Source of the DNA: Owenia fusiformis
Lineage: Eukaryota; Annelida; Polychaeta; Sabellida; Oweniidae
DNA length: 64,000 nt
Direction of reading: 5' to 3'
Assembly: GCA_903813345.2 (NCBI GenBank)
Contig: CAIIXF020000011.1
Location: 16,847,754 to 16,911,753 of the forward strand
Of this stretch, positions 13,651 to 63,155 are shown piece after piece. The notes below the pieces were generated by a model that was given only the letters and a program-made list of their open reading frames with translations, ran no database searches and was not told the origin of the DNA. Position 1 is the stretch's first letter, and every line of letters starts with the position of its first letter. A program made the position numbers and the translations under genes.

Positions 13651-16600
13651 TTATTGAAAATTGGCATATGTATCAAATGATGACATGTAGTTTTCAACTA
13701 CATCATGGCAAAATATGTACTGCTCCTGAAACATAGAAGTTAGTATATTAGTTTTATTTTATAGGAAACGAGCATATGACTAAGGGAAGGAGAATCGCAC
13801 CCCCTTGCAATACCACCATAGTCCATGGTATGAAATCTCCAAGACGTCTAATAAAGGAGCTGGTAGCACACTATAGCGCAGCGATATTATGACCTAATAT
13901 TAACATACCTACATATGTCCCCTAATAATTTTTTTATTATAACCATTCAATATACTTCCGGCGTTTAGGCTGAATTATGCCTGCCATTAACAGAGGTCAA
14001 AAAATCACCAAAAAAAATAAAATCCCAGCTCTTCACAATTTTAAGTAAAAAATGCAACAAAAATAATACAAAATGGTTTTAAATATATGATGTAGGTTTC
14101 TAAGCTATACGTTTGAGGTTATTTTCTTATCAATACCAAAAATTATGTAATCAGTGTATCGACGTTTTGTATTGTTTCTCAGGTATTAATAACATAAACG
14201 CTACAAATGAATCACTTTTATATTAGAATGACATATTTTTAAATTATACTAGTTTTTCATAAAATGGGTCTCAATACGTTTTATTCAGCGGTGAACATTA
14301 TCAATAAAGGAGGACCCATTGCTCTTCCTTGACTAATTGGGACTACAGCTAAAATCATATTTCTCGGAGTTAGATATAGCTCAGTTGCTTAAAAAACAAC
14401 CACCAGGAATTGGTCGAATTCATGAATAATTGAGAAAAATCGTTATCACTATCTTCCTAACATCTTCTGTAACATTTCATTAGATATAAATCTTACATAT
14501 TTGTTATTGTATTATGTTTTATAAAACATGAACAATAATTTGTTGTTTGACCCCTTGCGATTATATGGAAAAATTAAGAAAATTAATATGTTCACAATCA
14601 TAAATTACCTAAATATTCCACACAATTTTTCTGAATCTACTTGGCTCATATTTGAAAAACCAAACAAAATCTGAAAAACACACTGTCATAATTACACTAA
14701 TTAAACACCGACATTTAAAGAAAAATAACAGTATATTTTTACATTATGATAATCTATTTTTTGTTCGTATGCTTAGAATAACGGTCTGTGTCTTATAAAA
14801 TGTATAAAAGTTTGAATCAAAATCTTTACGTTTTTTTGACCCCTTGTAATGAAAGACATTTTTCGACCCGCAAGCCGGAAGTTTTTTCAGCAAATGGTAT
14901 TTTAAAATAATCAAGACATATGCACCCTCATAAATATTGCTTCAAATGTTGCTTCGCTATAGTGTGCTACGGATCCTTCATATTCGTAGTCATACCATGG
15001 ACTATAAGGCTTGTATCTCTTTCACATTGTTTGTGAGTATTAACAGTTTCTCAACTTGTAAATGTAATTAAAATGAAATAAACGAACCTAAAAAAGTTAT
15101 AATTTCTTTCATCAAAGATACTTAGCAAGCTTATTTATTGCTTAGTCATATCATGACATTTAAGTTTTAAATAACTTAACACATATTTCGATGATATCAT
15201 AAGTTATAACTCATAACAATAGAGAGATTTCGCACATAAGTGAAAGTACAACTTATACGTATACGTATAGTTTAAAGGGTCGTGTCGAACTATTATATTT
15301 ACTAAAATCAATTTTAAATTGTACTTAATGGAACATAACTATTCCCGTTATAAAAAAAGCTCCATCAACTAGAGACTGTGAATGCACTGTCATCTGCACG
15401 TGTAGATTATAATTACATGCTTGCTTCCGTGTCCTTGTAGTTGTAGTGTATTATAAACACGATCCTTTAAAGTGAGTCATGATTCTTTAAAGTGAGTCAT
15501 TACATAAACAAGTTGATTATTTCAATGTTTTCGTGATCAGTATAAGTTCAATGAACTTACAAAACGGTATATTTACGTAGATGATAACGTATACAGTTGG
15601 ATCTCCGTATAAAGATTTGCCTACATGTGTGTGGAACAATTGACCGCAAGCATTTTTTAAAATTAATTGGCTGAGTGGGAACAGTATCCAATCAAATACT
15701 TTAACCATCGATTTGAAACACCAATCAAACCAGTAGGTTCTAGCAATTCCTGGAAACAGTAAATTCAGTAGCTCAACATATGACATACAGGGTGTTTCAT
15801 AACGAGCATCTCCAAAAAGTCAATTTGAGAAGAGATGGGTCTATAACATAGTCTATGTACTATATATGAGCCTATTTTATTCAAGACAAAGACATTTGGA
15901 TCAACTAAACATGCTACAATTCAAGAAAGTACAAATGGCATCCCTTTGACCTGTATTTATTACAGTCCGAGAAGATCTTTCCTGACGAAAAGCCAACATT
16001 ATGAAACACCTTGTACGTTACCTATAAGTATAAGTATACGTTATAAGTTGTACTTTCACTAGGTGCGAAATCTCTCTAATAAGTTAAAACTTACAACTTA
16101 ACAGGTATTGGACTTAAATACCTATTTAACACAATAACATGCTATATACTAATATGGTAAATCAATGATATAACTTTCATGTGCTTAGATTCATAAGTAG
16201 AAAAACTATCTAACTGTACTTTAGTTTTACCTTTGTTGGAAGCAGTTGAGGCCTTGTAGTCTTCAAAGACTTGGCAATCTGGAATAAATCTACTTCTTGT
16301 TCCAGTTTTATGCTCTCCACTGCAGTTGAGGCCAGGCAAAACAAACCACTCCTGTCTGCACCATTCCTAGAATAAATATTACATTGAACCAAGATCAGGC
16401 AAACATGTTTAAAAGAAAAAAAGAATAGCCCAAAACAGGTAAATAAAAACAAACACCAATATCCCATACCTATGAACCATGGTATTGGATATATGTTCCT
16501 ATGAATCAATCTTAACGTGCAATATCTTGTAGAATAAATTAGAAAATTAATAAAACCTGAAGAGCCTCTAAGCCTCCAAACATACATATTTCTTCAATGA

Positions 16601-19600
16601 GAGTTAAGCAGTAAAATACAGCAAAATGATTGTTATTGATCTCATGATCTCTATAGTGTTACATTTTATCCGAAATCGATTAATACAAATCCATGTTGAA
16701 TTATATTCTTCAAATGTTGAGCCCACTCATGTTACACGATCAACTATTATAAGTGATAACTTTTGGGCAATCTTCTGATTATATATGACAAATGCGCCTT
16801 ACATGCAGTGTACAGTGATTGGTTTGTTGCCATGTTTCTGTTGCCATGCCTCAACAGCTGAGAGCAGATCAATCAAACCACTACAGCCATCCGGACATGC
16901 AGCATCAGGCGACCAATTTTGGATGTGGAACTGTTTCACTTGGTGCTCGGTACCCTAAATCATTGAAAAAATATTTTTGATTAAAGTCATCGATGATAAA
17001 GTTATACTTAAAAATGTGTATTTGAATTAGATGCCGTGACGGACCGTCTGTACTCTTGCTATACTTTGTGTGTCAAGATTAGAAAAAAGTCGTGATATTT
17101 GTAATACTTATTTATATTTTCTGGAGGAATTTAATTGTCAGTTTATTAAGCTATGTTCATTTTTAAATTTGACATGTAAACATGACACAAACTTTCTTGT
17201 TTTCATTACACCTTTGGATTACTCACATCAAACTCCACATTAAACTGTCTCTCTGTGAACGAATCACGATCATTGCAAGACAACAATGATATTTTGAAGG
17301 GACTAACATCCACACCCGAGTCTTCTTTCCAATAGCAAGGGGAATCCTACACAATAAATAAATAAGATACAGAACATACAAATGCACTCTATTTTATGTA
17401 TTTATGATTTTAGCCAAGGACTCGATGCATCTTAGATGATTTAATCCACCCATGTGTTATTTCCAGACCTTTGCATGAATGAACTTGCACAAGAGTTACA
17501 TTAACATACGATTTTCAAAGGCATAAACGTTCCATTTACAAGCATATCAAAATAACACAACAACCCCGTCTCGCAGTAATAAGGTATTTAAAATAAAATT
17601 ATATTTGTTAAATATAAGCAATGGTAAAAGGATATATAAACTCAATAATTAAAATTCAACACGTTTGAAATTAGAGTTGAATTATTTTATTTCCGGTTGA
17701 TATAACGTCTTATAGCGTTAGTGAAATCGAACGCGATTTCAACTGATTGGATAACATGATGTGATCATGAGTAGGTTATGTGAGTGGATGCACGATGGGA
17801 TCGTGTTATTCTGCGAGTAGCAACCGAAGCGTTTATACACAGTTTTAGTTAATGTTGTAAGTTGTCATACAACCGATTCGAAAATTTAGTTTTATTGTTC
17901 GAGGAGGCATACCTTTTTCCCTTTCGAAAGTCACAAAGATTTTGATGTGGGTTTTAACGGTGTCAGGTCGATAAACTAAAGTTTTTCATATTGAAGTCAA
18001 TGAACACTTTCTTTAGTGCTATTGACCAAATCAACGTTTTTGAATGAAGTATACGTGTTCTGACGTTAATGTAACCTGTTCCCAATAATTACTATTTTGG
18101 GAAGTATATTTTTCTGCAATTATTACAAAGCAGTGCATAGCATAGGATGTTAATTTAAGTTAATTAAAACATTTAGATATTAGGTTTCTAAGAAGCAATT
18201 ATGTAATGTGCATATACATCTGAAACTCAAGGCATGGCTTTTTACTGACAGCGCATTGAATCTAAGTGAATAAATATGTATTTAAGTGCGTTTCTGTCAT
18301 ATTGTTTCAAGGAAGGCACAACGTTTTGCTTTTAAAGATATTGATTTTATCCGAAAGTCCTTCATATTTTTAGATATGTAATATCTATTTCCAGAAGGGC
18401 ATCAATTTTGGTAATTTAAGATGATAGTTGTGTTCCTTTACAACATTTACAGTAGTTGTGTTATATCAGTGTGACAAACACATTAAGAGAAGTGCTTGTC
18501 AACTAATTGCATTTTATATTAAACAGATAGTATTGAGATTTACAACGTTTCGAAGAATTGTTCTTTTGCTTTTGTTGCAATACGAGATAAGTTTGTATTA
18601 AGGTTTGCAAAGCATGGTGCTTTCCAGATATTATATTGTTCATCACAATAGTTTTAGAAGATCGTATGATTTTTGTAGTCCGGGGTCGTGTATTCTTGTG
18701 ATAATCACGGAATTTTTGTATTTTGTGACCAACAATGTCGCATATTACGACAGTCTGTTAAGGAAGGAAGTTTCATTAACTTTCTGAGTTACGTGTTTTG
18801 CCAAAAGGCAATGTTATGGTTACAGTGCAAGTCTGTAGACAGTGATTTAGATTATTGTTATGTATTAATGACAGTGCGTGATTACTGTATTAGATAGTGA
18901 GACATGTTACTCACAGATTTTGCATAGTGCTAGAAGGCACTATATACATGTATGGTCCTTATACACGTTTTTTATATTGCAAGTTGACAGATAGTCACAA
19001 TTTAGAATTGGTTTATTCCGAAATTTGTGAATTAATTTGAGATCTTTGACGTGTTAACAAACGTGTAGCCACAATGGTTTTAATGACAGTTGATCATTAG
19101 ATATGGATGGGTTGTTGGATTTAGATGTTTTAATTAGGCACACGGTGCCTTATTGATGCCTTGAAGGCAGTTAAACATCGTAAATCAGCAGCGAGGTTGG
19201 GAGCCGAGGACGGATGTTGGGTATATTTGAACCTAAGAGGTTTCTGGCATTAATGCCATCGGCATCGTGGCCGCTATGACATTGGCATCGTGGCCGTCAT
19301 AGGTACCTGGATGCATCGCGACCTGGCTACATTTTTTTTTCACTCATTCTTTGTATCAGATGTACTTAATGCTATTCCAATAAACGCGGGCTGCTGGCTC
19401 GAATTTAATCCTATAATATATGTGATATTATGTTGTGTGGTTTGTGGTGAAGACTGTTTAATTAGGAAATAAGCTTATAAACTAGTACTTACTTTACTTG
19501 CAACGTACTTGTCGAGCATAACAACTGTATGCGATTGATGATCTCTCAACAGTCTGTATAAATCAACAACAGTGTTCTCCAGTGGCATCTGGGTAATGAT

Positions 19601-22600
19601 ATAGGCATCTTTGTGTTTGAAGCCCTAGTATTAAGTATGAACGTTCATGTACTTGCACATTAATATCAATGAAACACCAAAATCTAGTATTGGTCATGTT
19701 TTCAGTTGTTATTTAACATACTAAAATTAATCACCCCCCCCCAAGAATGAATGTGCAATTATGAATACAGGCCTGGATGATCAAAATATTTCCTAGCTAT
19801 GTATATAAAGATAATCCACGTTTGGTTTGATTACAATACATAATTTTGTTACGAACAATTTAATATAAAACCTAAAATCTCTATATGCCTCAGTCACATT
19901 TACACTACAGTTAGATTACAAACCTATGCATCATTGCATCATCACTTTACAGACAGCCTGGCAGTCACAAAATCAAAATGTGCCATGCGGTAAACCCCTT
20001 TGACTGCTACAGCAGCAGCAGCAAAATGTGACTAATCACAAAAACTTACGTTGACAAATACTGCATTTATGTAATCAGTTCTGTCATCAAATGTACCCCG
20101 CAAAAATGGTCTTGTTCGATTCACTAAAATAAAAGGTTATGATTAATGTATCACAAATATAGTTAATATTAAAACACAGAGTAATACTTTACAATTCCGA
20201 ACTCCACTGCTAAAACAACTGTTATCATTGATCAAGATACATGTACACAATCTGACAATTACAATAATATAATATAAGATCATAGTTTATCATATACATT
20301 GATATTATGTATAAAAATGATTATTCGGCCTATATGACATATCATACACAGGAACAGTCCATTCGATTTTAGACTTACATGGCAAGATTAATTTTGATCT
20401 ATTTTTACTAAGATTGTCTGGTAGTGTAGCGTGGCTGCAGTCGGTGGCATCTAGCGGTTTAGTCAGTGAGCACAGAGCCTGAAAAATAATATGACAAGTT
20501 ATGCCCAAAATGTGCATTGATATACATGTTTATTTCAATGTTATGGCCACTGCAAAGAAATTTAAATCTAAAACAATCCGTTGGTATTTTGGTATAATGA
20601 TTTGACTGAGTGTAGCAGTTTTATTTCTGTCAGGAGACGTAGCGAAAAATACATTTTTGCAGACCAAATATGTGACAACTAACTATGCCATATTTGCACA
20701 AGTAGTTTAAAAATGTTCTTTGCGTTAGAATGTATCCTCGGGGCCAAAATGTAGTGAAGTTGAATTACCTCATATTGAGTAATAATTTGCGATGTTGCAC
20801 CATCATTGGCCTTTTTCAGTTTCAGAAGAACGTCACTGAACTCAGACGCCACTATTGTCGTGTTCCCAACTCGCAACGCCTCGTCAAGTGTTTTATGAAC
20901 AAAGATGTATTGCTCCTGAAATGCATTGGAACCTTCAATTCTCTTTGATTTGAATTGGCTTCTTCGTTAAAATCATACACTGTAAGTTGTCTCTTGATTT
21001 TCAGAATAGGAAGCATCAATTGGCTTCTGAAGCAGCGAAATCACCATTCTCATTGTAACGTTTATAATATGAATACAATAGCATAAATTCTCGATAAATG
21101 TGACTCTTATTACCTTTGTTTGAACCATCATATGTCTTTGTGTACGTAGTTTCTGTACACAAGTAAAAACATCTACTTTGTTTTCCTTTTCAGCCTGCTG
21201 AAGTAATATATCAAGAGCTATGAATGTTCCCGTCCTTCCGACTCCAGCGCTGTAAGAGATACATTATGATGACCTTGTAACAAATAAAAGACATGGACGC
21301 CAAGAGAAATCCAAGGGGGTATGAACATGAACTAGGAAAGATACATGATTTAGGAAAGGTTGTCATAGAATAATATTAAAAATCCAAGGGGGTTTGAACG
21401 TAAACTAGTATAGATACATGATTTAGGAAAGGTTGTCATAGAATAATATTAGAAATCCAAGGGTGTTTGAACGTAAACTAGTATAGATACATTATTTAGG
21501 AAAGGTTGTCATAGAATAATATTAGAAATCCAAGGGGGTTTGAACGTAAACTAGTATAGATACATGATTTAGGAAAGGTTGTCATAGAATAATATTAGAA
21601 ATCCAAGGGGGTTTGAACGTAAACTAGTATAGATACATGATTTAGGAAAGGTTGTCATAGAATAATATTAGAAATCCAAGGGGGTTTGAACGTAAACTAG
21701 TAAAGAAACATGATTTAGGAAAGGTTGTCATAGAATAATATTGATATTTACACATTACCTGCAGTGTACAGCTAGTGGACTATTTCTCCGTTCACTCAGG
21801 TTATATTTAGCTGCCATAACAAGTCTATGGAAATATATCACGTGACCCGAATTGGAGGGAGCGCTATGATCGAGCCAGCCCGTAAAATGGTATTGTACTA
21901 TCTCTCTTTCACCTGGCTATAATAAAATTAGTGACAATATTTATCCTTAGGATGATTATTCTTTGAAAATCACCTGATAGTTATTTTAGTTGTGTATCAA
22001 CCCGGACGTACTATCCTTTATTTACAATATGATATGTATTATCTTGTAAGTATACTTACATCTTCCTTTTTCTTGACACAGAATATTCTTTTTGTATATA
22101 TATTTCTAGTTTCTTCACCCATTGCTTCTACAGTGATGTCACCGTAGTGCTCTTTGTGTTCATTATCTGGCCAATATTTCTCACATTTTTTCTAAAAGAA
22201 AGAAGAAATGACTATTTTGTAGGATGCTTCACTTCTTTGGAACTGCTGTTTTGTTCTAGACATTATATATTATATGATAGTCCCAAAACCGTGATCTTCA
22301 ATGTGTACCATTCACTCTGTTGTATGAAATAGTAAGTAGCTATTGTTTCCCGTACCTTTCCATTTTCTACCAAATTAGTTAATGTTACTACTAAAGCGAT
22401 GTTTTCCTGCCACAACAACCTCCATGTATCGTTTACTGTGTTAACTTTCGGGCCCTGTAGTGCAATATACCTCTTTTTGGTGTCCCCATATCCCTGCAAT
22501 AAAACCAAAGTACATACTCCGCACTAAACAGAACGTTTAAATAAATAATATATATTACTTGATCGTTTTACATATTTTTGGAATTAATTCTCTCGTAATT

Positions 22601-25600
22601 CAAATTTATTATGGAATCATTTTAGTGAATCCTAAATATTCGGGATGACGTTGTCGAACCGTATTTGCTTATTAGTCCAATAAATTGTATTCAAAGTAGT
22701 TAGAACATGTTTTGCGGAGAAAAATTGTTTAAATGGGATCCATCAAGAAGTGTAACGCCCCCTTTTGACAAATATTGACTCTTTAGGGAAGTCTTGCAAA
22801 GAAAACATACATCCTCTCGTTTACTACGGTAAACTATATTTCAGGAAGAATTGAAGAAAATAACAAAAGTTAAATTAATCCTCCGGAGAGCATCCATTGG
22901 TCTGCCAAAAATGAAACCAAACAAGTTTCAAGTTTTGGTCATTTTTGTTAAGGAATGAGGAAGTTCTTCATCAAAAACTTGACATTATCAATCATTTTTA
23001 TTATGCGCATATTTGTCAGAGATATCTAATTAGAGGATATTATTTTAATGAGGTATATTGAAATATTGGTTTGTCGTTTTATTGATTTTCCTCCGGTATA
23101 TGAAATGTGTTTGTAAATTCGCTTACCTCTATATACGATGCACTGATATAGTCAGTATCATTTGACGTTGTGTCAAGTACAACTCTGGTATGGTCGTCTA
23201 AAAAGTTGAAATATCATGGCCATAATATTGATGGATTAAGAATAAGACACTTGGTTGTATAAGCAAATGTTGAAATACACATGATAAACGAATTAATTGA
23301 AAGTATAGTGGGAATTGTAAATGTGCAATGTGCATCAAAATGACGCGATCGCAATACATCATAATGTCGTAAATACAAAACTGAGAGTAAATGTAGCTAC
23401 TAATCTTGAATCAGGCAGTTGAAGTTCAGAAAGTAATTTTGGAACCCCCGAATGGTATTTGAGTTGTGTTAGACCCTGTTTTCCAGGAAATTACACATCA
23501 AGTGTTTGGAATACTTGGAATTTGTGTCCATATCGCAATATGTACACTTGAATATTATTTCTCTACCAACGCATATTTTAAAATACTTGTTTTTCTCCTG
23601 TGTCACTTGTGTTTAGATATTTGTCTCATCCAGACAATTGCATTTAAATCCAAAATACAACTTTAACATATGTATTTAGAGTCCCAACTTGTCAATGCAC
23701 ACTATCTAGTATATCAAAAGCTGACTCGGCAAATCAAAAATTATTTTGAACACCACTTACATGTTGGTATGTTGACAAACCGATTTCTAACTTTGTTTTC
23801 TTGCTTTGACGATACATCATATTTTGCTTGTGGCGTGGAAGGCAATTGCTGAAACAGTCGAATAGTTGGGAAAATAAATAAAACATATAGTCAAACTAAA
23901 CGTAATTAAGAAATATAGACCGAAGAACAGGTGTTATATCGACGAATACATCCCACGGGGCTAAGCAAAAACGCTGTCTGGTTCGAAAGCTTTTGTGCCT
24001 AGCCCTAAGGGGTGTATTCGTCGAGATCACACCTGCTCTGAGGTCCCATTACGATTCGAACATGAAAACTCAACAAAATCTTTCAAATATTCATTTAATT
24101 GTCCGCCATTTCTATGGTCCGCCGTTATGACGTCACATATTACTCGTATTACCAGGGGTATGGTTCGCGAATATACCCCGGGTGATATGTTGACTTTGTT
24201 CCCAGTTTAAAAAAGACATGAATACAGTCATGCTCGAATTTACAATACGGGATGAATTAAACCACCCAGTTGTTCATTAGACCATGGACCTTAACGTATT
24301 AAAACAACGCACTGTACAAAAAAGTGTTATAACATGAAATAACACATAGTTGTACAATTAATTTGCTCAGTTTTAACTGAGACTAACATGAAAAATAAAA
24401 AATGATGGTCTCAGGTTTTAACAACTTTCACATTTGCCAGTTGTCATTGAATAATGGTATTTCTATGTAGAACGTCGGATATATCATCCTACTGCAAAAA
24501 TGTATATATGCACCTAGTCTTTCCAAAACTCGATCGGGTCAGTTTAAGATAAGCTTCAATAATAGCCCAGCCTGTAGACATGAATATGATGCGGAAAACA
24601 CAAAATCAACTCACATAGTATATAAAATCAACCTAAAGAGACCCTTAACACCAATAAGCAAATACATGCAAAGTAAATATTACACCATGGTCAGAGCAAT
24701 ATCAGGTACATAATAGGAAGTGATAAATCACATATTTTTTTACAAAATTTTCATTTTCTATTTCTTATTAAAAGTCCATGTTTTATTTAAAATTTAATTT
24801 TTTTCAAAAATGTCGATTTTGTTCAAAAAATTTCATTTTTTAAGTAATATGTTTATCCTAAATTCCCAATGCACGTTAGGGCGGGCCGGGATGATATGTA
24901 ACTTTAATATTCCCAACATCGTTTTCTCTCATTCAATAGAGGACTTTAGGTAGATACCTGTATTGCTCTTGACCATGGTAGAAGATCGTTATTCACTTGT
25001 CGGGATGATAGGAGGTATACACCTCGGATGATATCAGGCTACGGTCGCCGTATAGCAGTTCCTCAAAATCGAGAAATATGTAAGACCACAGCAGATGATA
25101 TACGCTCACCTCAAGCTGTCATTAGTGTATTAATCAACTTACATCAAACTCAGCCTTAAACGCAGCATTGTCATTTTGAGAAAGGCCATCTATATAGGTA
25201 GGTAAACGTTCGACTGGTATACTGGTATCCTTCATGGCAGACAAATTGCCGTATATATCCGTATCCAATCCATCAATAGCTATATCATTAGTTGAGACAG
25301 GAAGCAGGGAGTCTAAAACAACGTTGTCTCATATCATGTTAAGCGTATACATTTATCATTTATACATTTAAAACAACGTTGTTTCATATTATATTAAGCG
25401 TATACATTTTAAGTCTTGATGTGTGATATAAGAAATTAAAATTGTCTAAAGACTTGTAACCAAGAATAAGGTAATCATCATTAAGCGTTTCACAACTCTA
25501 ACGTCTAAAGAAAAAGAAGTAAATTGACCTTTACTAAGTCACGAGGGAGGTTAAGATACACATAGGGAGCACAGGTAACCTCGTGGTTACGGCACCCATG

Positions 25601-28600
25601 CGCCTAACTCGAAGGTGCTGGCGCTCAAGCCCTCCCGGCAATCTTGACAAACCCAAATCAACTTACGTGAACCACAGATAACTGCTCCCATCTCAATTGG
25701 TTTTCCCACTACTTAGACGACCATAATTCTACACGTTCACGGATAAGATCTTAAAAGGTGTAGCTTAACCTCCCTATTGTTATTTAACATGATAAACGAC
25801 AGAAGTAAAATTGAATTACTAGGTTTTGCAGCTGTTTGGAATTTTCCTATTTGTTTATTCGTTTCATTATTGTTCGCATTTTGTGTAGCTCTTTCTAGTG
25901 ATGTCAGTTTTTCCTCATCGGTTGTATTAATACCATTGGCAAATCCAGCATTAACGTATCCGTTACCTCCAGTAGCGCTCTCTAAATTTGTAATATACAA
26001 TTATTTTTCAGCCATGCTTTACCAAATATGTAAATATCTAAGTTTTATGTACCGAGGGGGTAAATATTTGGAATTAATCAATTAATTGATCGAAGAACAG
26101 TGCAAGTGGGTATTTCCTATGGTAAAGTCTTTAGCTAAAACCGAATGTTCATAAATGGTTTTTAAATCATTTTATACTTGAAAAATTCTCAAAAACTCAA
26201 TTGGTGTTTTATTAGGAAAACCCGTATAGATTGAAGAAGTTGAACCCAATGCTTGTTAAACTCATCATATATCTCACCGTCAACATATGCTCTTTGCCTA
26301 TCGTCTTTCTTTAGACGTCTTTTCCTAAAACAGACCATCGTTCCACATTCATTTCTAAACTTAGTGCACGTGAATGTATAACAATTTTCATGAAAAATGT
26401 ATTTTAATATGTTTGTCTATAGGTTATGATTCAGATGCTATTTACAGTTCCTCCATGAGGTTATTCTTGATTGTATTACACCCTCAAAAAGTATTTTATA
26501 TCATGGTAATATTATATGATAGTATTTCTTTAGGATATACCTTATAAATACAACTATTACAGTCGCAAGTACAGCCACTAGTATGACGCCAATCACTGCT
26601 CCAATAATCGGTACAGGATCTGTTGTACCTGGCCCTCCAGCGCCTAATGGGGTTCCCGATTAAAAATAAATGTTTTTTCATCAGTGACTGATTTTTTCAC
26701 TGATATGAAACCTTCATAATTTATAATGAAAATAATTTTGACAAATTGTTAGATATCTAAATACAAGTATTAAACGTTTAACAAATACTAATATTTCTTT
26801 TTGAATCAAAAAACATCCAAACATATGAGCCAATTCCAAAATATGGAGAAAGAATGGAGAAATACAAGTCTTCACCTAGATATATGTCTATTCCTTGATT
26901 ACCTTTTGCTGTTTCAAACTTAGCTCCATTTGCAGGTCCAAAACCTGCTCGGGTAGATGCACGTATTTCACAATCATACTTTGTGTATTCCTCTAGACCG
27001 CTGACAAAGACTTCTCGAGTTACAGAAGGAAGGGTTTGGTTGAATACTACAAAAGTTGTGTTCTCATAGCAGCTGACCTTGTAAAATCAAGCAGAATAGC
27101 GACATTTAAAAAACCAACATTAGGCCTAAAATTCATATAAAAACTGAATTTATATAAACACTTTGAACATCCTTCAACTTTCAATTCAATTTCAATTCAA
27201 TTAAATTAAGAGGGGGGGGGGGGGGGGGGTGGGGCGGAGTGTCTAATTTTGCAAAGTCAACTTGTTAAATTGAACTTCTAAATTCACATTATATTACCTA
27301 AGTGAAATGTCAGGATTATCTTTTGGTCAGTTGACAGTTTGAAAATAAATTATATTACTTTCTAAAAAGTAATTTATTATTTTAAAGCAAATTATTTTAC
27401 TTTTTCAAAACTAATTTTATATAGGCTCAGTCTTCCAATTTTCTATTGAAGGTAAAACATGCCCCTGTTCATATAACACCATATCATCAAAATATAGCAG
27501 ACCTTCGTCATATCTAAGTTCACACCAACGGCGCTTTGATGACATTTTAAAGTTATAATATATGTTACAAATAGGTGAAGCATCAATTTTGACCATCGTT
27601 TATTTGCTCAAATATTATATGTTCGTGAATGATTTGAAGTGCAATACAGGATATATCCTGCTCGAGAGATTCTATATTGGAACGAGAACGTTTTTTTTGT
27701 GTGATCTTAGGTCAATACATTTTACTTCAGCTAAGTTCACACCAACGGTGCTTTGATGGCGCTTTGGGAGATAATCCCTAGGAAATATTATGTATTTTCT
27801 ATATAGCTACTGATATTGTTCCTTCCGTACAAATATTTTCTTTGTTGTTACGGAGATGATCAATGGGAACAATCTCAGTAGCAATACAGATTGGTACAGC
27901 ACAAGAACTGACCAATCAGAGGGCTTCAATTTACAGATGATACGATAATATATTATATTATTGTAATAATTGGGTTCTCATTTAGCTACATGTAGTTGTT
28001 AATGTACATGTTTCTTGATTTACTTTTGATTACCTGATACTGCCGTAACCGACCATTAGTAAACTCTGGAGGACTCCATGTAAGATTGAATGAATTCACA
28101 TCACTTCCGCTAAGACTAAGCTCCCGGGGAGGAGATGGCTCTAAACAAAAAGTTCAGATAAAAACGATTGATATAAAAATATGATAATGACATATATAAC
28201 AAATCGTCAATCAAATCAAAAACTCTTAGGGTCAACGCTTATAAAAATTACAATGCGTCGGGAAGGTCGGATTACTCATAAATGAAAATGTATCCACTTA
28301 CTATCAGCAGGAGTAAGTGTGTCAAAGACTAAGATCCTAATCCCTTCGAGATTTGCATTATTTATCATAGTCAGCTCCACTTTGTATTGGGTATCAAAGG
28401 CAAACTTATCTATCGGTAGTTCTATATTATTTCCAGCTGTTTCACTCAATTTTTCTCCATTACGATAAATATTGTATACTTGAATTTCGTCGCACTTTAT
28501 TTCATCATTGTTAGGTCTCTGAAAACAGAAACACAAATCAAAATCAATCAAATCGCTTTCCATTTTCTTGAACCAGGCGAATAAGCCCGAAAGAATTACA

Positions 28601-47700: not shown

Positions 47701-48446
47701 TGGTGGCATTATTCTCCTGATCACCATCCTTGGTATACTCTTATGTGTCAGTAAAAGGTATGGCCGTTTTGCATTTTGAAGCACCATTTGCGTTTATAGC
47801 ACGTGTTTGCATTTGTAAGTGGGATGTCAGCTTACGCTTTGAAACGTTGATACCTACTGTAACGTAACCCATAGCTCGCACATATTGATCTCATCTCGGT
47901 AATTAAATATTAACATCATTACGACCAAAAATATTACTTGATATGTTTTCTGTTGGCTACTTGTCTTGGAGACATTGTTGCAATAATTATACTCTTGAAT
48001 TTAGGCGCAAGCCAAAGAAAAAAGAGGAACGGTTACGGAAACGAAGACTACAACAACGCCTGAACTCACTGAGCTTTTACGACAGCATTCCATTGTACGA
48101 CAGTGTTGGTCGTAAAACGGTTCCTCAGGGAATGCAAGAACACCATGGTGTCTATAATGTCGGTATGGCTAACATGGTACCAGCACAGGCTCAAGGCCCG
48201 TATGACACTGCTCCAAAGCCCCCTGGTTGGAAAGACTGGGGGAGTCAAGAGGGTGGGTCGGATAAGGACAGTGCTGTGTATGCTGAGTTAAGTGACAAGC
48301 AGTCCAGAGGTGGTAGAAGTGAAGCAGAGGACACGCCAGATAGATCCAGGAAACCAAGAAAAGAACACCATGATGATTTGGACAGTGGTGTGAGTCTTAA
48401 AGTGCCAAAAGAGAGAAGCCTTGATGATGTGTATACTCATGTCTAA
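44767..48446 (+). CDS. SUEL-lectin/CUB single-pass receptor (gene 3), 6 exons
   Basis: Exons 44767-44827, 45903-46190, 46308-46640, 46885-47457, 47625-47757, 48005-48446; phases agree; 609 residues. Exon 1 is a signal peptide (MILSMRICVTLVCGVITPCL). Exon 2 (~21-116) is a rhamnose/galactose-binding (SUEL) lectin domain with ECYGAVLGLSCRYGHKIHV and paired Cys. Exon 3 (~117-227) is a CUB domain with GYLSSPLFPNEYSPNLDCQC. Exon 4 (~228-418) is a Thr-rich, then acidic-Tyr, then Lys-rich stalk. Exon 5 holds the TM helix (~437-460). Exon 6 is a 147-codon tail with YDSI, YDSV, YNVG, YDTA, YAEL and YTHV motifs. It is likely a glycan-binding surface receptor signalling through tyrosine phosphorylation (inference). 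It lies head to head with gene 1, whose phosphatase could act on such a tail. Confidence 0.87.
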
Positions 48447-54862: not shown

Positions 54863-55768
54863 TTATTTCTGGTGTTCTTTAAGTTGTTCATAAACATGAG
54901 TGTCTGCATTATCAGCTCGCACGCCATCTTGAATAGTCTCAGCTTGGTCTAAATACGTTGATGATTGTCCATTTATTTCAGGCATTTGTTTATTAGCCTT
55001 TAAACCAATATTTACATATTCAGGTTCCGCGGTTGCTTGCCTATCAGAAATCTGCCCGATATCTAACGAAGGTTTCATTTCAATTCCATCATACTCCATA
55101 CTCTGTTCATGTCGTCCCGTAGGGATTGATTCCATATTTTGGTAGTCTTTGTCCAATTTACTTTCTGATGTGTTCCTGAAACTGATGACGAAATTCATAC
55201 ATAAAAGCAAAGGTTGCCCTCATATTGTACATTTTCGACTAAACATTTTTTATTGTTCATTTTAAAATTTTAAATTCTGTATTTAATACAAAGTTTATTC
55301 AACCCTATTGCTACTATATATATATTAGGGTCGTTCGAAAAGTTTTGCACGAAAGTTTTCTTTTTACAAAATGATATAGACTATTGAGTCATCGCCTTGG
55401 TTACTATAGCAATCGTAGAATGTTAAGTAGTAGAGGTATATACATTAAACCTTAACAGTGTAAGGGAATAAGATGAGGGTACATACGTACCAACTATGAA
55501 CATAAATGGTCTATTATTTTCACAATTAGATATATTTGTGCAAAACTTTTTGAACAACGCTTGTATATATACAACATTTTATTCGACGAATAAACTAGAC
55601 ATCAGATTACTGCTCACAAGTTTTACCTTTTGTTTCGTCTGAGAAGTACAGCGATAATGACAATTAATATCAGGATACACAGCGCGCCACCTATCGCCAC
55701 CCCAATGATAAAACCTACATGTACATGTTGATTTGTATTGGGTTGTCTTGTGCATTCTTGACTCCCTC
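54863..55768 (-). other. Gene 2: TM helix and tyrosine-motif tail
   Basis: Exon 55627-55768 encodes GFIIGVAIGGALCILILIV, continuing IIAVLLRRNKR. Exon 54863-55175 encodes a 103-residue tail ending in TAA. Tyrosine motifs in order: YQNM, YDGI, YVNI, YLDQ, YEQL. YQNM and YVNI fit the pY-x-N rule for Grb2-type SH2 binding. The splice after the TM is at the same phase (AG|G) as in gene 1, where the phosphatase-bearing tail begins. Confidence 0.85.
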
Positions 55769-58700
55769 CTAAATCAAAAGGATAGTAAAACATAAAGAAC
55801 GTACAGAGGGTTTACAGAGACCCATAAATAGAAATATTTGCAAAAGACTTACGAAGCCACACGTCGTTCGGAAAAATTGTTTAGACGAACATCAGACACG
55901 TGTATGGTTGTATTATTGCGATGTTAATTGTATTGAATGAAATGGAATGATGTCTGCATATTCTGATACTGCTCTGACATAGCAAACTGACAATAGGCTT
56001 TCAAGCTTTCAATTTCTTTTATTTACAATTTTGTAGAACATCAGTAGTTCCAATAATATCCTTCGAGTTTGATATTAGAGATAAGTCGCATTACAGAATC
56101 GTTGGGGTTATAAGTATCAATAAAAAACGTTGAGAAGGTGACAACATAGCATTTTTATGTTATATCATAGGTCAATCTGAGTATCCAAACAACTGGCTCT
56201 TACTCAATACCCGTACTGAAACATATGATCAAAACATAGACAGAACGTTAACAAAATCGGCTATGCTGTGAACTATCAAATGGTTACTATAGCAACAACC
56301 ATTTTGAAGTGATTCATTGTATCTCAATATTTTTTTCTTTTTCAGGGGGTTAGGAAAATGTCAAATGCTTCTTTTCTGAAAATTTGAATGATGAATGACA
56401 AGAAATAAAAGTTTGAGAGCAAAATTAGCTTTACTTACTGAACGCCTTGTACAATTACCTGTTTCTGTTTGAAAAGAGTCTTTCGCCACGGGTCCATAAC
56501 CTGCTTTTGTTGATGCTTTGACTTCACACTCATACGTTGTCTCAGACTCAAGATTACTGACAAATGTCTCGCTAGTCTCAGACGCCAGTATTTGCTTTAA
56601 CACTACGTATGTTGCGTTCACGTAGCATGTTACCTTAACGGGAACAGAAAACATGCAATTTCAAATGTGAAACAGTTTAACTCAATAAAACATGTCACGC
56701 CCTGATAACTTAATAAATCAATGATCTGAACCAAGGGGCCTTCCTTAAACCTTTAAAAGTGAGTCTTTAATTTCTTATTTCAGAACTGTCAAGGATAGGG
56801 ACAGGATAGGGACAATTATAGGGACAATTATTTATATCAGTAATTATCAAAACAATTAGTTATGAAGATTTAAGCGAAGGATGTACACGAATTTACGGTT
56901 TACCTGATACGTCAGCAATCGGCCATTTGTAAACTCTGGAATATTCCATGTAAGATGAAATGATTTCGTATCACTTGCTCTTATACGAAGATCTTTTGGT
57001 GGTGATGGTTCTGAAAAAACCCAGACATCGTGTATTGCAAGAACAAAAGATTTAAAAACAGAATTATAACTTTCACCTCAACTAGATACTCACTATCAGC
57101 AGGAGTCACTGTGTCAAAGACTAAGACCTTTGGACCCTCAAGATCTGCATTATTTACCATGGAGAGCTCTACTTTGTATTGGGTTTCAAACTCAAAATCT
57201 CTATTTGTGAGTTCAATATTCTCCTCGGATGTATCCTTCAAATACTCTCCATTTCGATAAATCTTGTAGGATTGCATCTCGTCACACTTTATTTCGTCTT
57301 TTATAGGTTCCTAAAGCAGAAACACAAAATAAAAACTAAATTGTCTGTTTCCCCTCTGAGCCAGCAATGCTATACACTCTTCTACTCATATGTATTCTGG
57401 GCGTATTAAAGCATGGCCTTACAATCGTATATCATGTTGTTATTGACACGTATGTGACAAATATTAGAGGTGATAAGAAATATTTTGACCCACAATGATT
57501 TCTGTTCTCTCTCGATTCACTTTTCCAGGGACCTAATTACAGAGGACCATGATTCTAGATGTTCATGTAAACGTTAAAAACGTGTATCTTTACCTTCCTA
57601 ATAACGCTAATTTGGTTCAATCACTTGTGTTTGATATCAGCTCGTCGATAAAATGATACAATAACCATTCAAAATTATATTTTTTATATACACTCATTAC
57701 ACTTGCAAAATTCATGTTCAGTTTCAAAGGTCCTACAGTGGCTATTTACATACATACCATCCATCTTAATTTTGCAGTTAGAGTTGATTGCTCTGTGTGA
57801 TCCGAGGATGATGTTATGACAAAGTCATATGTGGTATTCAGTGTCAAATAAGTTGGATCTAAACGAAAGAGGAAAAGAAATACTATGTGGTTTTTAATGC
57901 TCCTATTTACAATGCTAATTTCCATTCATTCGTTTTTTATTTTAAGGAATGTACATTCCTGTTTCACATTGAGTTTAAGTTAAATGTTTAATAGGATGTT
58001 AATTTTGAACTGATTTAGAGCAATATTTTGCATTTACCTCCGCATGTAATAAATGGATCACTCCAATCAGATGTTGCGCCTATTTCTATATCACTAACTT
58101 CATATGAGTACAATGCTGAAACACGAAAAACAAAGATGCTATCCTTTGATAAGTTGTCAATTCTTGCCATCAACCCAGAAATGTAAATAGATTCTATATT
58201 ATCATCTTCGTTTGAGGAACTTCTGTATTCAACTCTGAAGGATTTTGTAGCTGCAGTATCACGTTTGATATTACTCTTAGCTTCTAAAACATTCCATTCT
58301 ATCTCAATGTAATCAGCACCTCGACTCTTCAACACAGGTTTACCATCTATTTTGGGAACCTCTGAAATTACAATTCAATCATACTTTGATATATACAATT
58401 ATAATGCTAGAAAATTACAACAAAAGTGATTTAACAAAATTTAGCAAACGTATTTTATTACTGATTCAAAAACGAAAAAGCAAGTGTACCTTGATTACAA
58501 GCGTATTTTGGATAGTAATTATATTCACAATCACCACTGCAAAAACCATCTTCCCTTTGACAATCGTCGAGTGTCTTGCAATGTCTCGTACACTCCTTGG
58601 CACAATTTATTCCCCATTTTCCAGCAGAACATCCTGAAAGTACCGTTCATGTCTATGAAATTGCAGAGAACATGTTTTCCGATCAGAGACATTCATTTCG

Positions 58701-61700
58701 ATTCCCCAATATCCTCAATATACTCCAACAGTTAGTTTAAATATGTTTAAACTATAATCCATGCAAATTTCATTGAAATCCATGTATAAATAAAAAAGTT
58801 ATGACATTATTATCTTTATTTCCTGAACACACTGTATTCCTGTTCATTTTTTTCAAAAAGTGTCTATCAAATGTTGAAATCGTTTGTTTTGGTTCAGTTT
58901 CACAGTGTCAGCCTTGTTCTCTAGCTAAGTGAATCCTACAAATTGATATCAAATTCCCATTGTCAAATATCTTAGTAAAGACATTTTCTGATTTTACGGT
59001 GTCATCCTAGAAGCGGTTTAATTAAAGCTTTGTCAAATTTTCATAATCAATGAATATATATATACTTATGCATTCCCTCTCAGGCCCATATCCAGCCATG
59101 CAATCCCCAGGACACCATCCATCAGATTTGACACAAGTATCACCAGCTTTGCATTTCCTGGTACATTCTATACAGGAGGCACCATAGTGACCATCAGTAC
59201 ACTCTAAATAAAAAAGGATGAAAGCACATCTGCCATAAATATGAGACAAGGCATAGATCATGTTGCATATTTTAAAATAAATCTACGGAAGCATTCCTTA
59301 CTTGTTCCGAGATAAATCTTGTATGTTATATTTATAATCATATTACATCTCAAATGATTGGTGTACCTGAGGTCCCAAAAGGTATGAAAAGCATACAAAA
59401 TGCTAATGTACAGTCAACCAATATTTTTGTATCCAAATCAAGATTCTGTGAAGTTCTTGTAGTTTTGGTAAACAGCTTTTTCTGAACGTATAATTTCCAT
59501 CTGGCATGGGCTTTGATGTAAATGACAAATTGTTCTACGGCTATTTATAACATGATGAAATCGATGTAATAAGTGTTTCTCACCGTACAGCTCTATGTCA
59601 CATATTGACAATACTGTACTAGAAGAAGCAGTGTCTTTTATTTTGATTGTAAGGTCATTTGTCGGTTTGGAGAGGCAGCTAATTGTCTTTTCATCTTTAT
59701 GACCAAATACTTTCTCCTCGCATTTTTCTCCACTGGGCTTCATTGTTACTTCTAAAGTTTGGTTTCCAATGTTATCAGGATCTAAAGTAAGTCAATATGA
59801 ATAGTAATCTAAAGTAAATTTAACATTGGTACAACTAGTTGGAAAATGTCTAATTTCGTCTCATATCGTCAAGATCTCAATGACGTGTCGCAAAAAGGTG
59901 GCGCATTTGTTTTTAAGGGTATCGCGTGATTGTAACTTTGATTCCCCGGATTATAAGATAATATTCTAATTAAAGTTATATATTATTTTAAAGCTGTTTC
60001 GATGAAGTTTCTAGATCAACTACACTCCGTTCACAATTCTTGTGCGTTCTTTTTTAAAAAAGAGTTTTTTACCAAAACATCTGGCAAATATCCCCTGTTG
60101 ACACGTTACATTTTGAATTATTTTTCGTCTTTAAACGCTCATAACTCAAACAATATATGACTATTTTACTTATTTTTCGTCTTGATAAAGGTAGATGGAA
60201 GTTTTATTTTAAAGGATGAATTTTAGTAAGCGTCCCATATTGTGACGTCATAGAGTTTGAAAAATAGAATCTGTTGACAGCGACCTTTTTTGCTCATTTT
60301 TTGTTACCTTCAACTTTTCAGGTGTACATTAAACAAAAAATACGAGATCAATTTTTAATAAATCATACATGATTATAATGCTCTTAAACTTTAGTTTATT
60401 AATAAAAAGTTGATTTTGTTCGCAAAAGTATGTGTTTTCTGTTGTATGTGGAAAAGTGGAGGACGAAAGGTTTTCAAAATGCATTAAAATAGGGCTAATT
60501 TACGCCATTCGCATATTTTCAAGCACAGCAACACGTATATTTATTTCACCTAAAATATCAATTGATTCGTGTTTTATGATGGTCCTATCCCATTGTTAAT
60601 ACATATACGATATCAGAGTTATTCGCCTTAAATATTTTGAGATATAGAGGCAAATGTGGAGGACGAAAGGATTTCCATATGTTTACATTTTTCTCAATAA
60701 ACGTCACATTCTGTGGTGTGAAAAAGCGAAAATGTGTAACAATGCGTGTGCGACCTTTTTGCGACACTTCAATATAAATAAATAAAGACATATAGTGAAT
60801 AATTAATTAAAACATAACATCAGTACGAGGGATAATAATGTGTCTGTGACAATGTGCATACAATTAAATGAGTTTCAACACATGCAAACTTATGCCTCAC
60901 CTCCTATTATATTGTATGTGTAGATGCTGTTTGATTCAGACCCGTAATTTTGACATATATCTCCGAAGTATCTACAGCTCTGTTTGCCACGTTCAAACTG
61001 AAATGCAGCACAGAAACCAGACTTGTCGCATTTAGTTTTGCACTCTTGAAATGTATATGCAGTGAGTTCTCCCTTTTTGTCATGGTTGCACGTATTACGA
61101 GTTACATTGTAACGCAGTGGATCTGGAATAGAGTATACGTCTAAAATACACAATGAGAACTACCATTCCTAACAAAAGGCTTTGTTAAAATTCTACTTGT
61201 TTTAGAAAGCGAAATATGTTACATCCAAGAACTTTGCCTTGTATTAAATATGACATTTGCTCCTTGCAGTTTCCAAAAGGTTTCTTCTGAATAAAACATA
61301 TTTGTCTTAAAGGCCCACTTTGCGTATTTTCAACGTTTTGGGGCAAACTAAAGACTTACATTTGAATTTCATAGTATGTCTCATGTATTGATAAGAACCT
61401 TATCTTTCATTTCACACCAGCAACAGTTCAAACGGACCACATCAACGCTTACAATAAATTATCAAAAAATGGTTTATATATCAAGTTTTTATCAATGTCA
61501 TTGAAAGATGGCAAAGTTGTTTGTATTACATGATACATTCATTGTTATAGAAGTGTCGCCATCAAATCAACAGTATAATTTCAAACATGCAGATTGTTTA
61601 ATGATGTCCAATGATCTCAGAACTTCAAATGCTTTTTTCTATGTGAGTTATTTTTTCTTGGTTCAATATTAAAGCAAATCAAACTTTGTGTCATAATTGA

Positions 61701-63155
61701 GCGAGTGTGTGAGTAACATGTTTCAATGATTTTTTTTCTTCTAAATTAAGTATAGTGGGCCTTTAAGTCAATATTACAGAGATTTCGTTGGCTAACTTAC
61801 TGAAAACCCGAAAACACATCAACTAATTGTGCACGTGTTATAATGATGACGTCAATCCGCAATTAATCGCATGCACATATCTTGTTTTTGAGAATCGCGC
61901 CCCGTTACAAATGTTATATATTGTATTTAATGTTTTGATATATAAAAATTATTAAAATACATACATGTGTTGACAAGTGACAAGGAAATTTGATACCTTG
62001 ACCTGGTAACTATAAAGACTGCTGCCAAAGTGATACAGAAACAATTAACAATAGGCAATCGCATGGGACTTTTAATCCAAAGGATCCTATCGAATACTTA
62101 CAACCCGTTATACACTTATGTTAAGCAGTGATCTTTTAGTTTAGGAAAAGCCGGTGACCTGCTATCAGCTGCTGCAGAATGTAAACAAAGCCTGCATAGC
62201 TGACTACCACTAAAGCGCTAATGTGTAACTTGACCTTTTTAACATTGCTGGCATTTGGTTGCTATTAAAAGACAGCCACTTGCTTGTGAGATGTAACTAG
62301 GATTAGGGTTTCCCAATTTTGGGAGTAGTCTTAGTAAAATATGTCTGGGGGGCGTTTGCAGGAAGGGATCAAAACAATTTTTTCAATCCTGCATAGGCAA
62401 GACAATTCTCTAAATTAACAATTTTGAATCAAGTTGATCCCTTCCTGCAATTTTGAGAGATTTAATGTTCAAGTTGCCAGAATGTTCAGAGAGAATACAT
62501 TTATTAACTAACCAGCCTTTCATCAAGGTGCTTTAATCTGATAAACTTTCACTCAAATTAAGAGAAACCCTGGAAACATTAGAGGAAGGGGTAGTACTTT
62601 CACAAAGTGTTAATTTCAAGACCTAACTCAGTATTAATTACAAGCTGTAATACTATTTTTAAGATGATCACACATTTTAGATACCAAAGAGTTTCTGTGT
62701 AAGCATTAGGCCATATGGTGGGAAATCCTAGCAGTGACGTCACTCACTAGCTGATAAGACCAGCTTGAGTAGCATTAAGTGCACTAACTAAAAGTTCGTT
62801 TACAGGCCAACATAACATAAGTGTATAGCATAGACACTCATTGCCCATTGTCCTCCAGTACCAACCACGTCATGCTCATTTCCCCTGTAATCGCCCTTGT
62901 ATCCTGTACACTCAGACGAACTACCATTTTTGTTATATGTGCCATATCCGTCCCTTGAAGTAAAACAAATTCCACCATTCTGGACACCAATTACTTTTTT
63001 ATTATTGGCCGCCACAGCAGTGAAGCACTTCTTCACTTCCAAAACTCGATTCCAATAATCATCGTTCAAATAATCAATATCTTCGCCATCAATGTTCCAA
63101 TCCAGTGCTCTATCAAAGTCGTCCCCAAAGCATCCGAAATATTTATACGGAAGAG
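54863..63155 (-). CDS. Gene 1 paralogue without phosphatase domains (gene 2), 5' partial
   Basis: Exons in transcript order: 62817-63155 (3' border uncertain), 60901-61140, 59584-59781, 59066-59203, 58490-58633, 58038-58361, 57758-57858, 57094-57310, 56904-57010, 56459-56633, 55627-55768, 54863-55175. Nine consecutive exons have exactly the lengths of their gene 1 partners (240, 198, 138, 144, 324, 101, 217, 107, 175). Order: WSC-like, PAN, second half of the galactose-binding-like domain, two EGF, three FN3, TM, short tail. The first exons (leader and N-terminal lectin half) should lie to the right of base 64000. It is the same-strand tandem duplicate of gene 1 with a different cytoplasmic end. 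It is likely a surface receptor seeing a related ligand (inference). Confidence 0.86.
56459..58361 (-). other. Gene 2: three fibronectin type III domains
   Basis: 58038-58361 is FN3-1, 57758-57858 plus 57094-57310 is FN3-2, and 56904-57010 plus 56459-56633 is FN3-3. Exon sizes and phases are the same as gene 1. Conserved strings include [19 protein letters not shown] and TQYKVELSMVNNADLEGP. Confidence 0.8.
59782..60900. other. Gene 2 intron
   Basis: Contains GTGGAGGACGAAAGG twice (about 60458 and 60655) as a short direct repeat, each followed by similar TTTTC/ATTTC sequence. Nothing else is recognised. Confidence 0.4.
62356..62450. repeat. Foldback element, 95 bp
   Basis: Perfect 17-bp arms: TTGCAGGAAGGGATCAA at 62356-62372 and its reverse complement at 62434-62450. 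It lies in a gene 2 intron. Confidence 0.8.

What the first reader, a model, noticed from the sequence alone, without database searches (positions are those of the whole stretch)
13651..63155. Paired-receptor arrangement: phosphatase receptor and tail-swapped tandem paralogue
Genes 1 and 2 lie on the same strand with matching ectodomain exon lengths and phases over nine exons. After the TM exon, at the same splice phase, gene 1 enters tandem PTP domains while gene 2 ends in a 103-residue tail with five tyrosines, two of them in Y-x-N context. Matching ectodomains with opposite signalling ends recall vertebrate paired receptors. The pairing logic is inference; the exon and motif facts are read from the sequence.
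Basis: partly seen in the sequence, partly recalled or inferred. Interest (0 to 1): 0.86.

Follow-up and report, generated by a model that had tools for sequence, protein, structure and literature searches.

The report
Receptor gene array, two signalling ends
In an invertebrate genome, a row of neighbouring receptor genes shares nearly the same outer part, but one of the two genes here ends in an enzyme that removes phosphate from tyrosines and the other in a short tyrosine-bearing tail, an arrangement that resembles the matched on/off receptors of vertebrate immunity but has not been tested for function.

Summary
Gene 1 (minus strand, stop at 13651) is a receptor tyrosine phosphatase (PTP) with tandem PTP domains. 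Gene 2 (minus strand, first in-window exon at 63155) shares ten ectodomain exons with it, nine of identical length, all in the same phases, then ends in its own 103-residue tail exon with five tyrosines.

It is an array, not a pair: seven intact homologous tail exons and three PTP genes lie on one strand over about 0.33 Mb. Gene 1 is not gene 2's closest relative. Its outer half (e0-e7) is recently shared with tailed gene T3 (93.5% over 1,488 bp, introns included) and similarity falls right after e7; its inner half and TM are much older. This pattern is known from vertebrate paired receptors kept alike by recombination. In a second ectodomain subfamily, kinship of the outer part also crosses the PTP/tail divide.

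The tail is conserved coding sequence, but its signalling sign is unknown, and gene 1's first PTP domain has an altered WPD loop. Paired-receptor logic is plausible (about 0.5) but unproven. New variant of a known kind.

The parts
   Evidence: Pfam F5_F8_type_C_2 1e-4 for e0+e3 of gene 2, below the curated cut-off
39747..39810 (-). gene 1 candidate signal-peptide exon (tentative)
   Evidence: hydrophobic ORF with a phase-1 donor; an exon of this kind is shared by T1, T2 and T3 but the tblastn did not find it in gene 1
36960..37286 (-). gene 1 e1, WSC-like
   Evidence: for the homologous exon of gene 2 Pfam WSC E 0.33, sub-threshold
34556..34777 (-). gene 1 e2, PAN-like
   Evidence: Pfam PAN_1 0.0096, below the curated cut-off
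32270..32467 (-). gene 1 e3, C-terminal half of the F5/8-type domain
29682..30173 (-). gene 1 e4 (30173-30036) and e5 (29825-29682), Cys-rich repeats, EGF-like by eye only (no Pfam match)
   Evidence: similarity of the two repeats
26903..29489 (-). gene 1 e6 (29489-29166), e7 (28991-28891), e8 (28518-28302), e9 (28140-28034), e10 (27077-26903), FN3 region
   Evidence: Pfam fn3 5.4e-18
26541..26643 (-). gene 1 TM exon, ends in phase 2
25143..26324 (-). gene 1 juxtamembrane exons j1 26324-26278, j2 25981-25820, j3 25312-25143
20769..23848 (-). gene 1 PTP domain D1 (seven exons); [10 protein letters not shown] intact, WLD for WPD, RNRF for KNRY
   Evidence: Pfam Y_phosphatase 2.1e-129, two stretches
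13651..20478 (-). gene 1 PTP domain D2 (seven exons, last 13725-13651); HC-MNGAD-R intact; C-terminus YANFQ*
56459..63155 (-). gene 2 (T1) ectodomain exons e1-e10: 63155-62817, 61122-60901, 59781-59584, 59203-59066, 58633-58490, 58361-58038, 57858-57758, 57310-57094, 57010-56904, 56633-56459; its e0 and signal exon lie outside the window
55627..55768 (-). gene 2 TM exon, ends in phase 2
54863..55175 (-). gene 2 terminal tail exon (103 residues after the shared Arg; five Tyr; stop TAA)

Best explanation
Shown: genes 1 and 2 belong to a one-strand tandem array of type I receptors with two ectodomain subfamilies and two kinds of cytoplasmic end, a receptor tyrosine phosphatase or a short conserved tyrosine tail. 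Shown by distances: gene 1 (P1) has parts of different age. Its outer half, e0-e7, is recent and shared with the tailed gene T3; its inner FN3 part and TM are old. The likely cause is gene conversion or unequal crossing over between PTP and tailed neighbours (inferred; direction unknown). Inferred: the array works like paired receptors. A shared or overlapping ligand would be bound by both kinds. A kinase would phosphorylate the tail, whose Y-x-N and YE(Q/K)L sites would dock SH2 proteins. The PTP member, brought in by the same ligand, would set the threshold by dephosphorylating tails or their kinases. The sign of each end is not known.
For: Array: a genome search with gene 2's TM and tail gave 23 matches at E<=10. 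Eight are tail exons, all on C11 within 16.90-17.10 Mb (seven intact, one degenerate with stops); the best match off this cluster has E 0.17 (counts are lower bounds). Pfam PTP matches (E<=0.001) in the cluster lie only in P1, P2 and P3. T1-T4 carry gene 1's exon set. Recombination: P1 against each of T1-T4 has dS 0.18-0.38 in e0-e7 and 0.83-0.98 in e8-e10, a shuffle being as extreme in 0-3 of 5000; five of six T-T pairs show no such step (410-4471 of 5000). The P1-T3 block of 93.5% over 1,488 bp includes introns and ends 10 bp past the e7 donor; e8 78.6%, e9 72.2%, e10 no blastn match at 1e-8. Subfamily II: the ectodomain of P3 (PTP) groups with T5 and T6 (tailed) against P2 and X in an unrooted tree, bootstrap 99, although P2 and P3 have alike PTP domains (92% in the P-loop exon). 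Tail constraint: dN/dS 0.23-0.62 in the 12 between-subfamily pairs, Fisher p<0.05 in 11 of 12; three Tyr kept in 7 of 7 tails. The same recombination signature is described for CEACAM paired receptors (PMC2832619, passages).
Against: No expression, ligand or phosphorylation data. Tyr is not clearly kept above other residues: 3 of 20 invariant columns, P=0.048 (T1 as reference) or 0.15 (T5). Within subfamily I the tail evolves fast (dN/dS 0.41-0.88; Fisher p<0.05 in 3 of 6 pairs). P1's D1 has WLD for WPD and RNRF for KNRY, so its activity may be weak. P1 itself ends in YANF, and its juxtamembrane region holds YVN and YGN, so the two ends are not cleanly opposite. T4 has an in-frame stop in e2, T1's e1 donor is weak, and T2's e4 and e10 donors had to be placed 3 and 6 nt off. 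T7 has no recognised ectodomain. One T-T pair, T1-T4, also shows a dS step, in the other direction (6 of 5000), so recombination is not special to the PTP/tail contrast.
Confidence: 0.5

Rival explanations
1. Ordinary birth-and-death of a tandem adhesion or lectin-receptor family. Tailed receptors and PTP receptors have unrelated jobs; unequal crossing over merely put a T3-like outer half onto an older PTP gene, without shared-ligand logic.
For: Fragments are common in and near the array: two copies of P1's D2 exon p11 on the plus strand, a relic of P2 exons downstream of T7, a degenerate e10/TM/tail copy next to T3, e0, e1, e5 and e6 fragments at 17.005-17.023 Mb. Two tailed genes, T1 and T4, also exchanged sequence: tandem neighbours recombine regardless of function.
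Against: Mixing of PTP and tail ends over related ectodomains is seen in both ectodomain subfamilies, and in P1 the outer half is alike to tailed genes while the inner half is not.
Confidence: 0.33
2. Exon-cassette or read-through locus: gene 2's ectodomain and TM are spliced onto gene 1's PTP exons in some transcripts, so that the two are alternative ectodomains of one PTP.
For: Gene 2 lies upstream of gene 1 on the same strand and both TM exons end in phase 2, so the join would be in frame.
Against: Seven intact tail exons, each with its own stop, are conserved. No PTP exon was found between gene 2's tail and gene 1. A plus-strand receptor-like gene with a CUB exon lies between them.
Confidence: 0.07
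3. Gene 2 is a decaying or decoy copy with no signalling of its own.
For: Weak e1 donor in gene 2; T4, its closest relative, has a stop in e2; gene 2 and T4 tails differ with dN/dS 0.79.
Against: Gene 2's modelled exons are open to the tail's stop, its tail keeps the three shared tyrosines, tail dN/dS is 0.23-0.25 against T5-T7 though dS is near saturation, and its ectodomain dN/dS is 0.33-0.39 against P1, T2, T3 and T4.
Confidence: 0.1

Closest known systems
Vertebrate paired receptors, in particular CEACAM (also KIR, LILR, Siglec, SIRP; SIRP recalled)
   Same: Clustered paralogues with alike ligand-binding parts and different cytoplasmic ends; the outer part kept alike by recombination or gene conversion (PMC2832619, 12 of 40 passages shown).
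   Different: Ectodomain is F5/8-, WSC-, PAN- and FN3-like, not Ig; one end is a built-in PTP rather than an ITIM that recruits SHP (the ITIM-SHP route recalled); the tails carry no obligatory ITIM or ITAM.
Botryllus fester co-receptors (FcoR), and Hydractinia Alr as mentioned there
   Same: Invertebrate receptor families whose tails carry tyrosine motifs of different sign (PMC12065747, 12 of 30 passages shown).
   Different: Ig/sushi ectodomains with ITIM, hemITAM or core motifs. The passages mention CD45-like receptor PTPs as expressed in the ampullae, but not as the alternative end of the same receptor family.
Receptor PTP alpha (R4 class), for gene 1's cytoplasmic part
   Same: Tandem D1-D2; best PDB match 6uzt (E 4e-127); both end in YANF plus one or two residues (alignment). 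pTyr789 of PTP-alpha binds Grb2 (PMC11048185 and PMC7959691, passages); that this YANF is the Tyr789 site is recalled.
   Different: Large multi-domain ectodomain; WLD and RNRF in place of WPD and KNRY. D1 scores higher to single-domain chains of PTPRK, PTPRT and PTPRM (221-228 bits) than to the PTP-alpha D1 chain 1yfo (201 bits), so the class is not settled.
R3-class receptor PTPs (PTPRO, Drosophila PTP10D), for P2 and P3
   Same: FN3 ectodomain; the best single-domain PDB chains for P2's PTP are CRYP-2, PTP10D and PTPRO (the class name is recalled); no second PTP domain found in the sequence fetched behind P2 and P3.
   Different: Lies in an array with tailed paralogues that share its ectodomain type.

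Membership tests
Paired receptors | clustered genes with homologous ligand-binding ectodomains | tested here: met
   10 of 10 exons homologous, 9 of 10 equal in length between genes 1 and 2; T2-T4 carry the same ten exons
Paired receptors | different cytoplasmic signalling ends | tested here: met
   tandem PTP domains versus tyrosine tail
Paired receptors | ligand-binding part kept alike by recombination or gene conversion | tested here: met
   dS step between e0-e7 and e8-e10 in 4 of 4 P1-T pairs; 93.5% block ending at e7. Which part binds ligand is not known
Paired receptors | opposite (activating/inhibitory) signalling | not testable with these tools
   motif content does not settle the sign
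Paired receptors | shared ligand and co-expression | not testable with these tools
   no RNA or binding data held
ITIM receptors | ITIM (S/I/V/L/T)xYxx(I/L/V) in the tail | tested here: inconclusive
   present once in 5 of 7 tails (T3-T7), absent in gene 2 and T2
ITAM receptors | ITAM spacing Yxx(I/L) x6-12 Yxx(I/L) in the tail | tested here: not met
   2 of 7 tails (T5, T6); absent in gene 2
Receptor PTP (gene 1) | Y_phosphatase domain(s) behind a TM segment | tested here: met
   two stretches, E 2.1e-129; TM exon
Receptor PTP (gene 1) | catalytic HCX5R in D1 | tested here: met
   [10 protein letters not shown]
Receptor PTP (gene 1), catalytically competent | WPD loop and KNRY loop in D1 | tested here: not met
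   WLD and RNRF against WPD and KNRY in 6uzt; the Asp of the loop is kept. P2 and P3 have WPD and KNRY

The most novel reading that the evidence does not exclude
A recognition system of a spiralian animal in which a built-in receptor phosphatase and a set of tyrosine-tailed receptors repeatedly exchange one recombining recognition half, so that the same specificity is offered with two signalling outputs. This would be a paired-receptor logic that arose outside vertebrates and without the ITIM-SHP route, possibly for allorecognition or microbe recognition.
Probability: 0.3. Interest if true: 0.85.

Novelty: new variant of a known kind. Interest (0 to 1): 0.62.

Why it matters
If the logic holds, matched receptors with opposing outputs evolved in an invertebrate lineage (probably spiralian) with the phosphatase fused to the receptor itself, which would make the general rule (same recognition, two outputs, kept alike by recombination) directly testable outside vertebrates. 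Even without it, the array is a clear case of ectodomain and signalling-end shuffling, with a mapped similarity border between a PTP receptor and tailed receptors.

Tried and rejected
Gene 2 as a truncated PTP gene: P1's PTP exons (E<=0.01) and P2's (E<=5, best 14 per query shown) were searched over the 124 kb that hold P1 and T1-T4; beyond P1 itself only chance-level matches came up. Pfam PTP found none between P1 and P2.

Tail exon as an alternative last exon inside PTP genes: T7 has PTP juxtamembrane exons downstream of its tail, which first suggested this. A 31-bp match to P2's TM region also lies downstream of that tail, so I read it as a separate relic of a P2-like gene. The match is short and the point is not closed. 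No tail exon was found between TM and PTP in P1, P2 or P3; only a chance-level resemblance of the tail to P3's juxtamembrane exon (E 0.34-1.6), which leaves open that the tail arose from such an exon.

End of gene X (C11:17148-17154 kb): no tail and no PTP found in the 18 kb behind its TM (Pfam on the first 8.5 kb); C11:17122001-17130000 was not fetched. Also not fetched: 16971754-17000000, 17030001-17082000, 17155001-17160000; these are covered only by the genome-wide searches.

Origin of P1's inner half: no close second copy found (best other hits are the T genes, 52-67%). Of P1's PTP, the nearest by identity are two isolated copies of its D2 exon p11 on the plus strand (75%, 89%); the highest score is an intronless PTP on C6 (34%).

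Topology tests for subfamily I were dropped: by the distances the unrooted five-taxon trees of both halves would have the same shape, so distances were used. Rows dropped before counts: e0 left out for pairs with T2 (length differs) and T4 (not in the fetched sequence); T4's stop codon skipped; T7 used only in tail and TM comparisons.

No structure was predicted: spliced proteins are not read letter for letter from the DNA, so none was submitted.

Literature: searches (15 of 85 listed; 12 of 69; 12 of 25; 1 of 1; 12 of 61; 0) listed no paper that, from title and start of abstract, describes a PTP/tail paired-receptor array in an invertebrate. One search returned nothing; some were for organism, Hydractinia and Grb2. 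Papers of which passages were read: PMC9977687, PMC12065747, PMC2832619, PMC11048185, PMC7959691; none was read whole. The library lacks most subscription papers, so absence from print is not shown.
Full report
What was checked. The window is C11:16847754-16911753 of an unnamed 498-Mb assembly. Gene 1 and gene 2 are on the minus strand, and gene 2 lies upstream of gene 1 in the direction of transcription. Self-comparison found ten homologous exon pairs by protein, the ten exons falling in nine DNA blocks. With splice sites placed, nine of ten pairs have identical length, and the tenth is 327 against 339 nt; phases agree in ten of ten. Both TM exons end in phase 2. Gene 1 continues open through three juxtamembrane exons and the PTP exons, seven for D1 and seven for D2 (last exon), with the stop codon at 13653-13651.

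A genome-wide search with gene 2's TM and tail gave 23 matches at E up to 10. Eight of them are tail exons, all on C11 minus strand between 16.90 and 17.10 Mb: gene 2's, six further intact ones, and one degenerate copy with stops. Ectodomain exons recur in the same stretch. I fetched 140 kb of the array, mapped exons, and later fetched more. In the direction of transcription the order is P3 (PTP), X (end unknown), P2 (PTP), T7, T6, T5, T4, T3, T2, T1 (= gene 2), P1 (= gene 1), where T stands for tailed. T2-T4 carry gene 1's ten exons; T2 differs in length in e1, e4 and e10 and T4 in e1, and two T2 donors had to be placed 3 and 6 nt off. T4 has an in-frame stop in e2. T5 and T6 are a recent duplicate (92-93% over about 2.5 and 2.0 kb) with FN3 ectodomains of the type seen in P2, P3 and X. 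T7 has TM and tail but no ectodomain was recognised. Pfam PTP matches in the array lie in P1, P2 and P3, with one relic of P2-like exons behind T7.

Ectodomain. The WSC-like e1 and PAN-like e2 lie between the two halves in P1, T1, T2 and T3; T4's e0 was not in the fetched sequence. All four of these exons are phase 1-1, so e1 and e2 could be skipped without loss of frame. Cys-rich (EGF-like by eye) and FN3 exons follow. A signal-peptide exon is visible upstream in T1, T2 and T3 and only tentative in P1.

Recombination. Synonymous distance (Nei-Gojobori) between P1 and each of T1-T4 is 0.18-0.38 over e0-e7 and 0.83-0.98 over e8-e10; shuffling codons between the blocks gave a step as large in 1, 3, 0 and 1 of 5000 trials. 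In the six T-T pairs the same test gave 4220, 417, 6, 410, 4471 and 897 of 5000; the one extreme pair, T1-T4, runs the other way, with e8-e10 nearly identical. The TM exon of P1 is at or near saturation against the T genes. At DNA level P1 and T3 share 93.5% over 1,488 bp from before e4 to 10 bp past the e7 donor, introns included; e0-e3 are 88-92%, e8 is 78.6%, e9 72.2%, and e10 has no blastn match at 1e-8. P1's outer half is thus as close to the tailed genes as they are to one another, while its inner half lies outside. The direction of transfer is not determined. This is the kind of signal used for CEACAM paired receptors (PMC2832619, passages).

A second case. In the FN3 subfamily the unrooted ectodomain tree of P3, X, P2, T6 and T5 separates P3+T5+T6 from X+P2 with bootstrap 99, although P2 and P3 have closely related PTP domains (92% in the P-loop exon). 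The root and X's end are not known, so the number of switches is at least one.

The tail. The seven tails align with 20 invariant of 107 columns, three of them Tyr: (E/V)Yxx(I/V), (E/D)YxN and (V/I)YE(Q/K)L. Tyr is not strongly over-represented among invariant columns (P 0.048 or 0.15 by reference). All seven frames are open and end at a similar place, while the other two frames hold 2-16 stops. Across subfamilies dN/dS is 0.23-0.41 for T1, T2 and T4 and 0.55-0.62 for T3, with dS 0.87-2.10, near saturation; within subfamily I it is 0.41-0.88 and within II 0.29-0.60. Gene 2's tail is thus conserved coding sequence, but not tightly constrained. An ITIM-like site occurs in 5 of 7 tails but not in gene 2's or T2's, and ITAM spacing only in T5 and T6. 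The sign of the tail cannot be read off.

The phosphatase. P1's cytoplasmic part matches two PTP domains, and its best whole match in the PDB is RPTP-alpha (the query carried one residue too many). D1 keeps the [11 protein letters not shown]-loop and the Asp of the WPD loop but has WLD for WPD and RNRF for KNRY; D2 keeps CX5R. P2's PTP resembles single-domain PTPs such as CRYP-2, PTP10D and PTPRO, and no D2 was found in the sequence fetched behind P2 and P3 (13 kb behind P3). So the PTP ends of the two subfamilies seem to be of different kinds. P1 ends in YANF as RPTP-alpha does, and pTyr789 of PTP-alpha binds Grb2 (PMC11048185 and PMC7959691, passages), so Y-x-N is found on both kinds of end.

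Verdict. The anatomy and the array are firm. That array members are paired in function is an inference of moderate probability. The source is probably not a bivalve: 12 chromosome-size contigs in 498 Mb fit Owenia fusiformis (PMC9977687, passages), but no marker was tested.

Noticed in passing
window 45743-48446 (+): A separate plus-strand receptor-like gene lies between gene 2 and gene 1: SUEL-lectin-like exon (0.0098, below cut-off), CUB exon (1e-9), Thr-rich exon, a TM-like stretch and a cytoplasmic part with several Tyr (AVYAEL, DVYTHV at the end).
   Followed up: partly
window 32270-38576 (-), and T1, T2, T3: An F5/8-type domain seems split over e0 and e3 with two phase 1-1 exons (WSC-like, PAN-like) between the halves, so skipping or inclusion would switch between an intact and an interrupted domain.
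   Followed up: partly
C11:16966-16969 kb (L006): T4, the tailed gene closest to gene 2, carries an in-frame stop in e2 while its other modelled exons are open: a young pseudogene, an allele or an assembly error.
   Followed up: no
C11:17093.9-17098.6 kb (L010): Downstream of T7's tail lie copies of P2 juxtamembrane and first PTP exons (up to 93% identical); no further PTP exons follow in the sequence fetched.
   Followed up: partly
C11:16811186-16811320 and 16819454-16819588 (+) (L034): Two isolated copies of gene 1's D2 exon p11 (89% identical) on the opposite strand, 8.3 kb apart, with no other clear gene 1 exon in the 47.8 kb searched.
   Followed up: partly
window 33882-34403 (-): ORF with a weak match to the zinc-binding domain of reverse transcriptases (4.6e-5, below cut-off) in an intron of gene 1, a likely retroelement relic.
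   Followed up: no
window 21301-21764: Tandem repeat of about 73 bp in the gene 1 intron between D1 exons p5 and p6.
   Followed up: no
window 7047-7487: Tandem repeat of about 114 bp that stays open in one frame.
   Followed up: no
C3:3946-3951 kb (L019): A locus on another chromosome-size contig with FN3 exons 50-61% identical to P3's and a weak TM-like match; no tail and no PTP match above chance in the 10 kb fetched.
   Followed up: no
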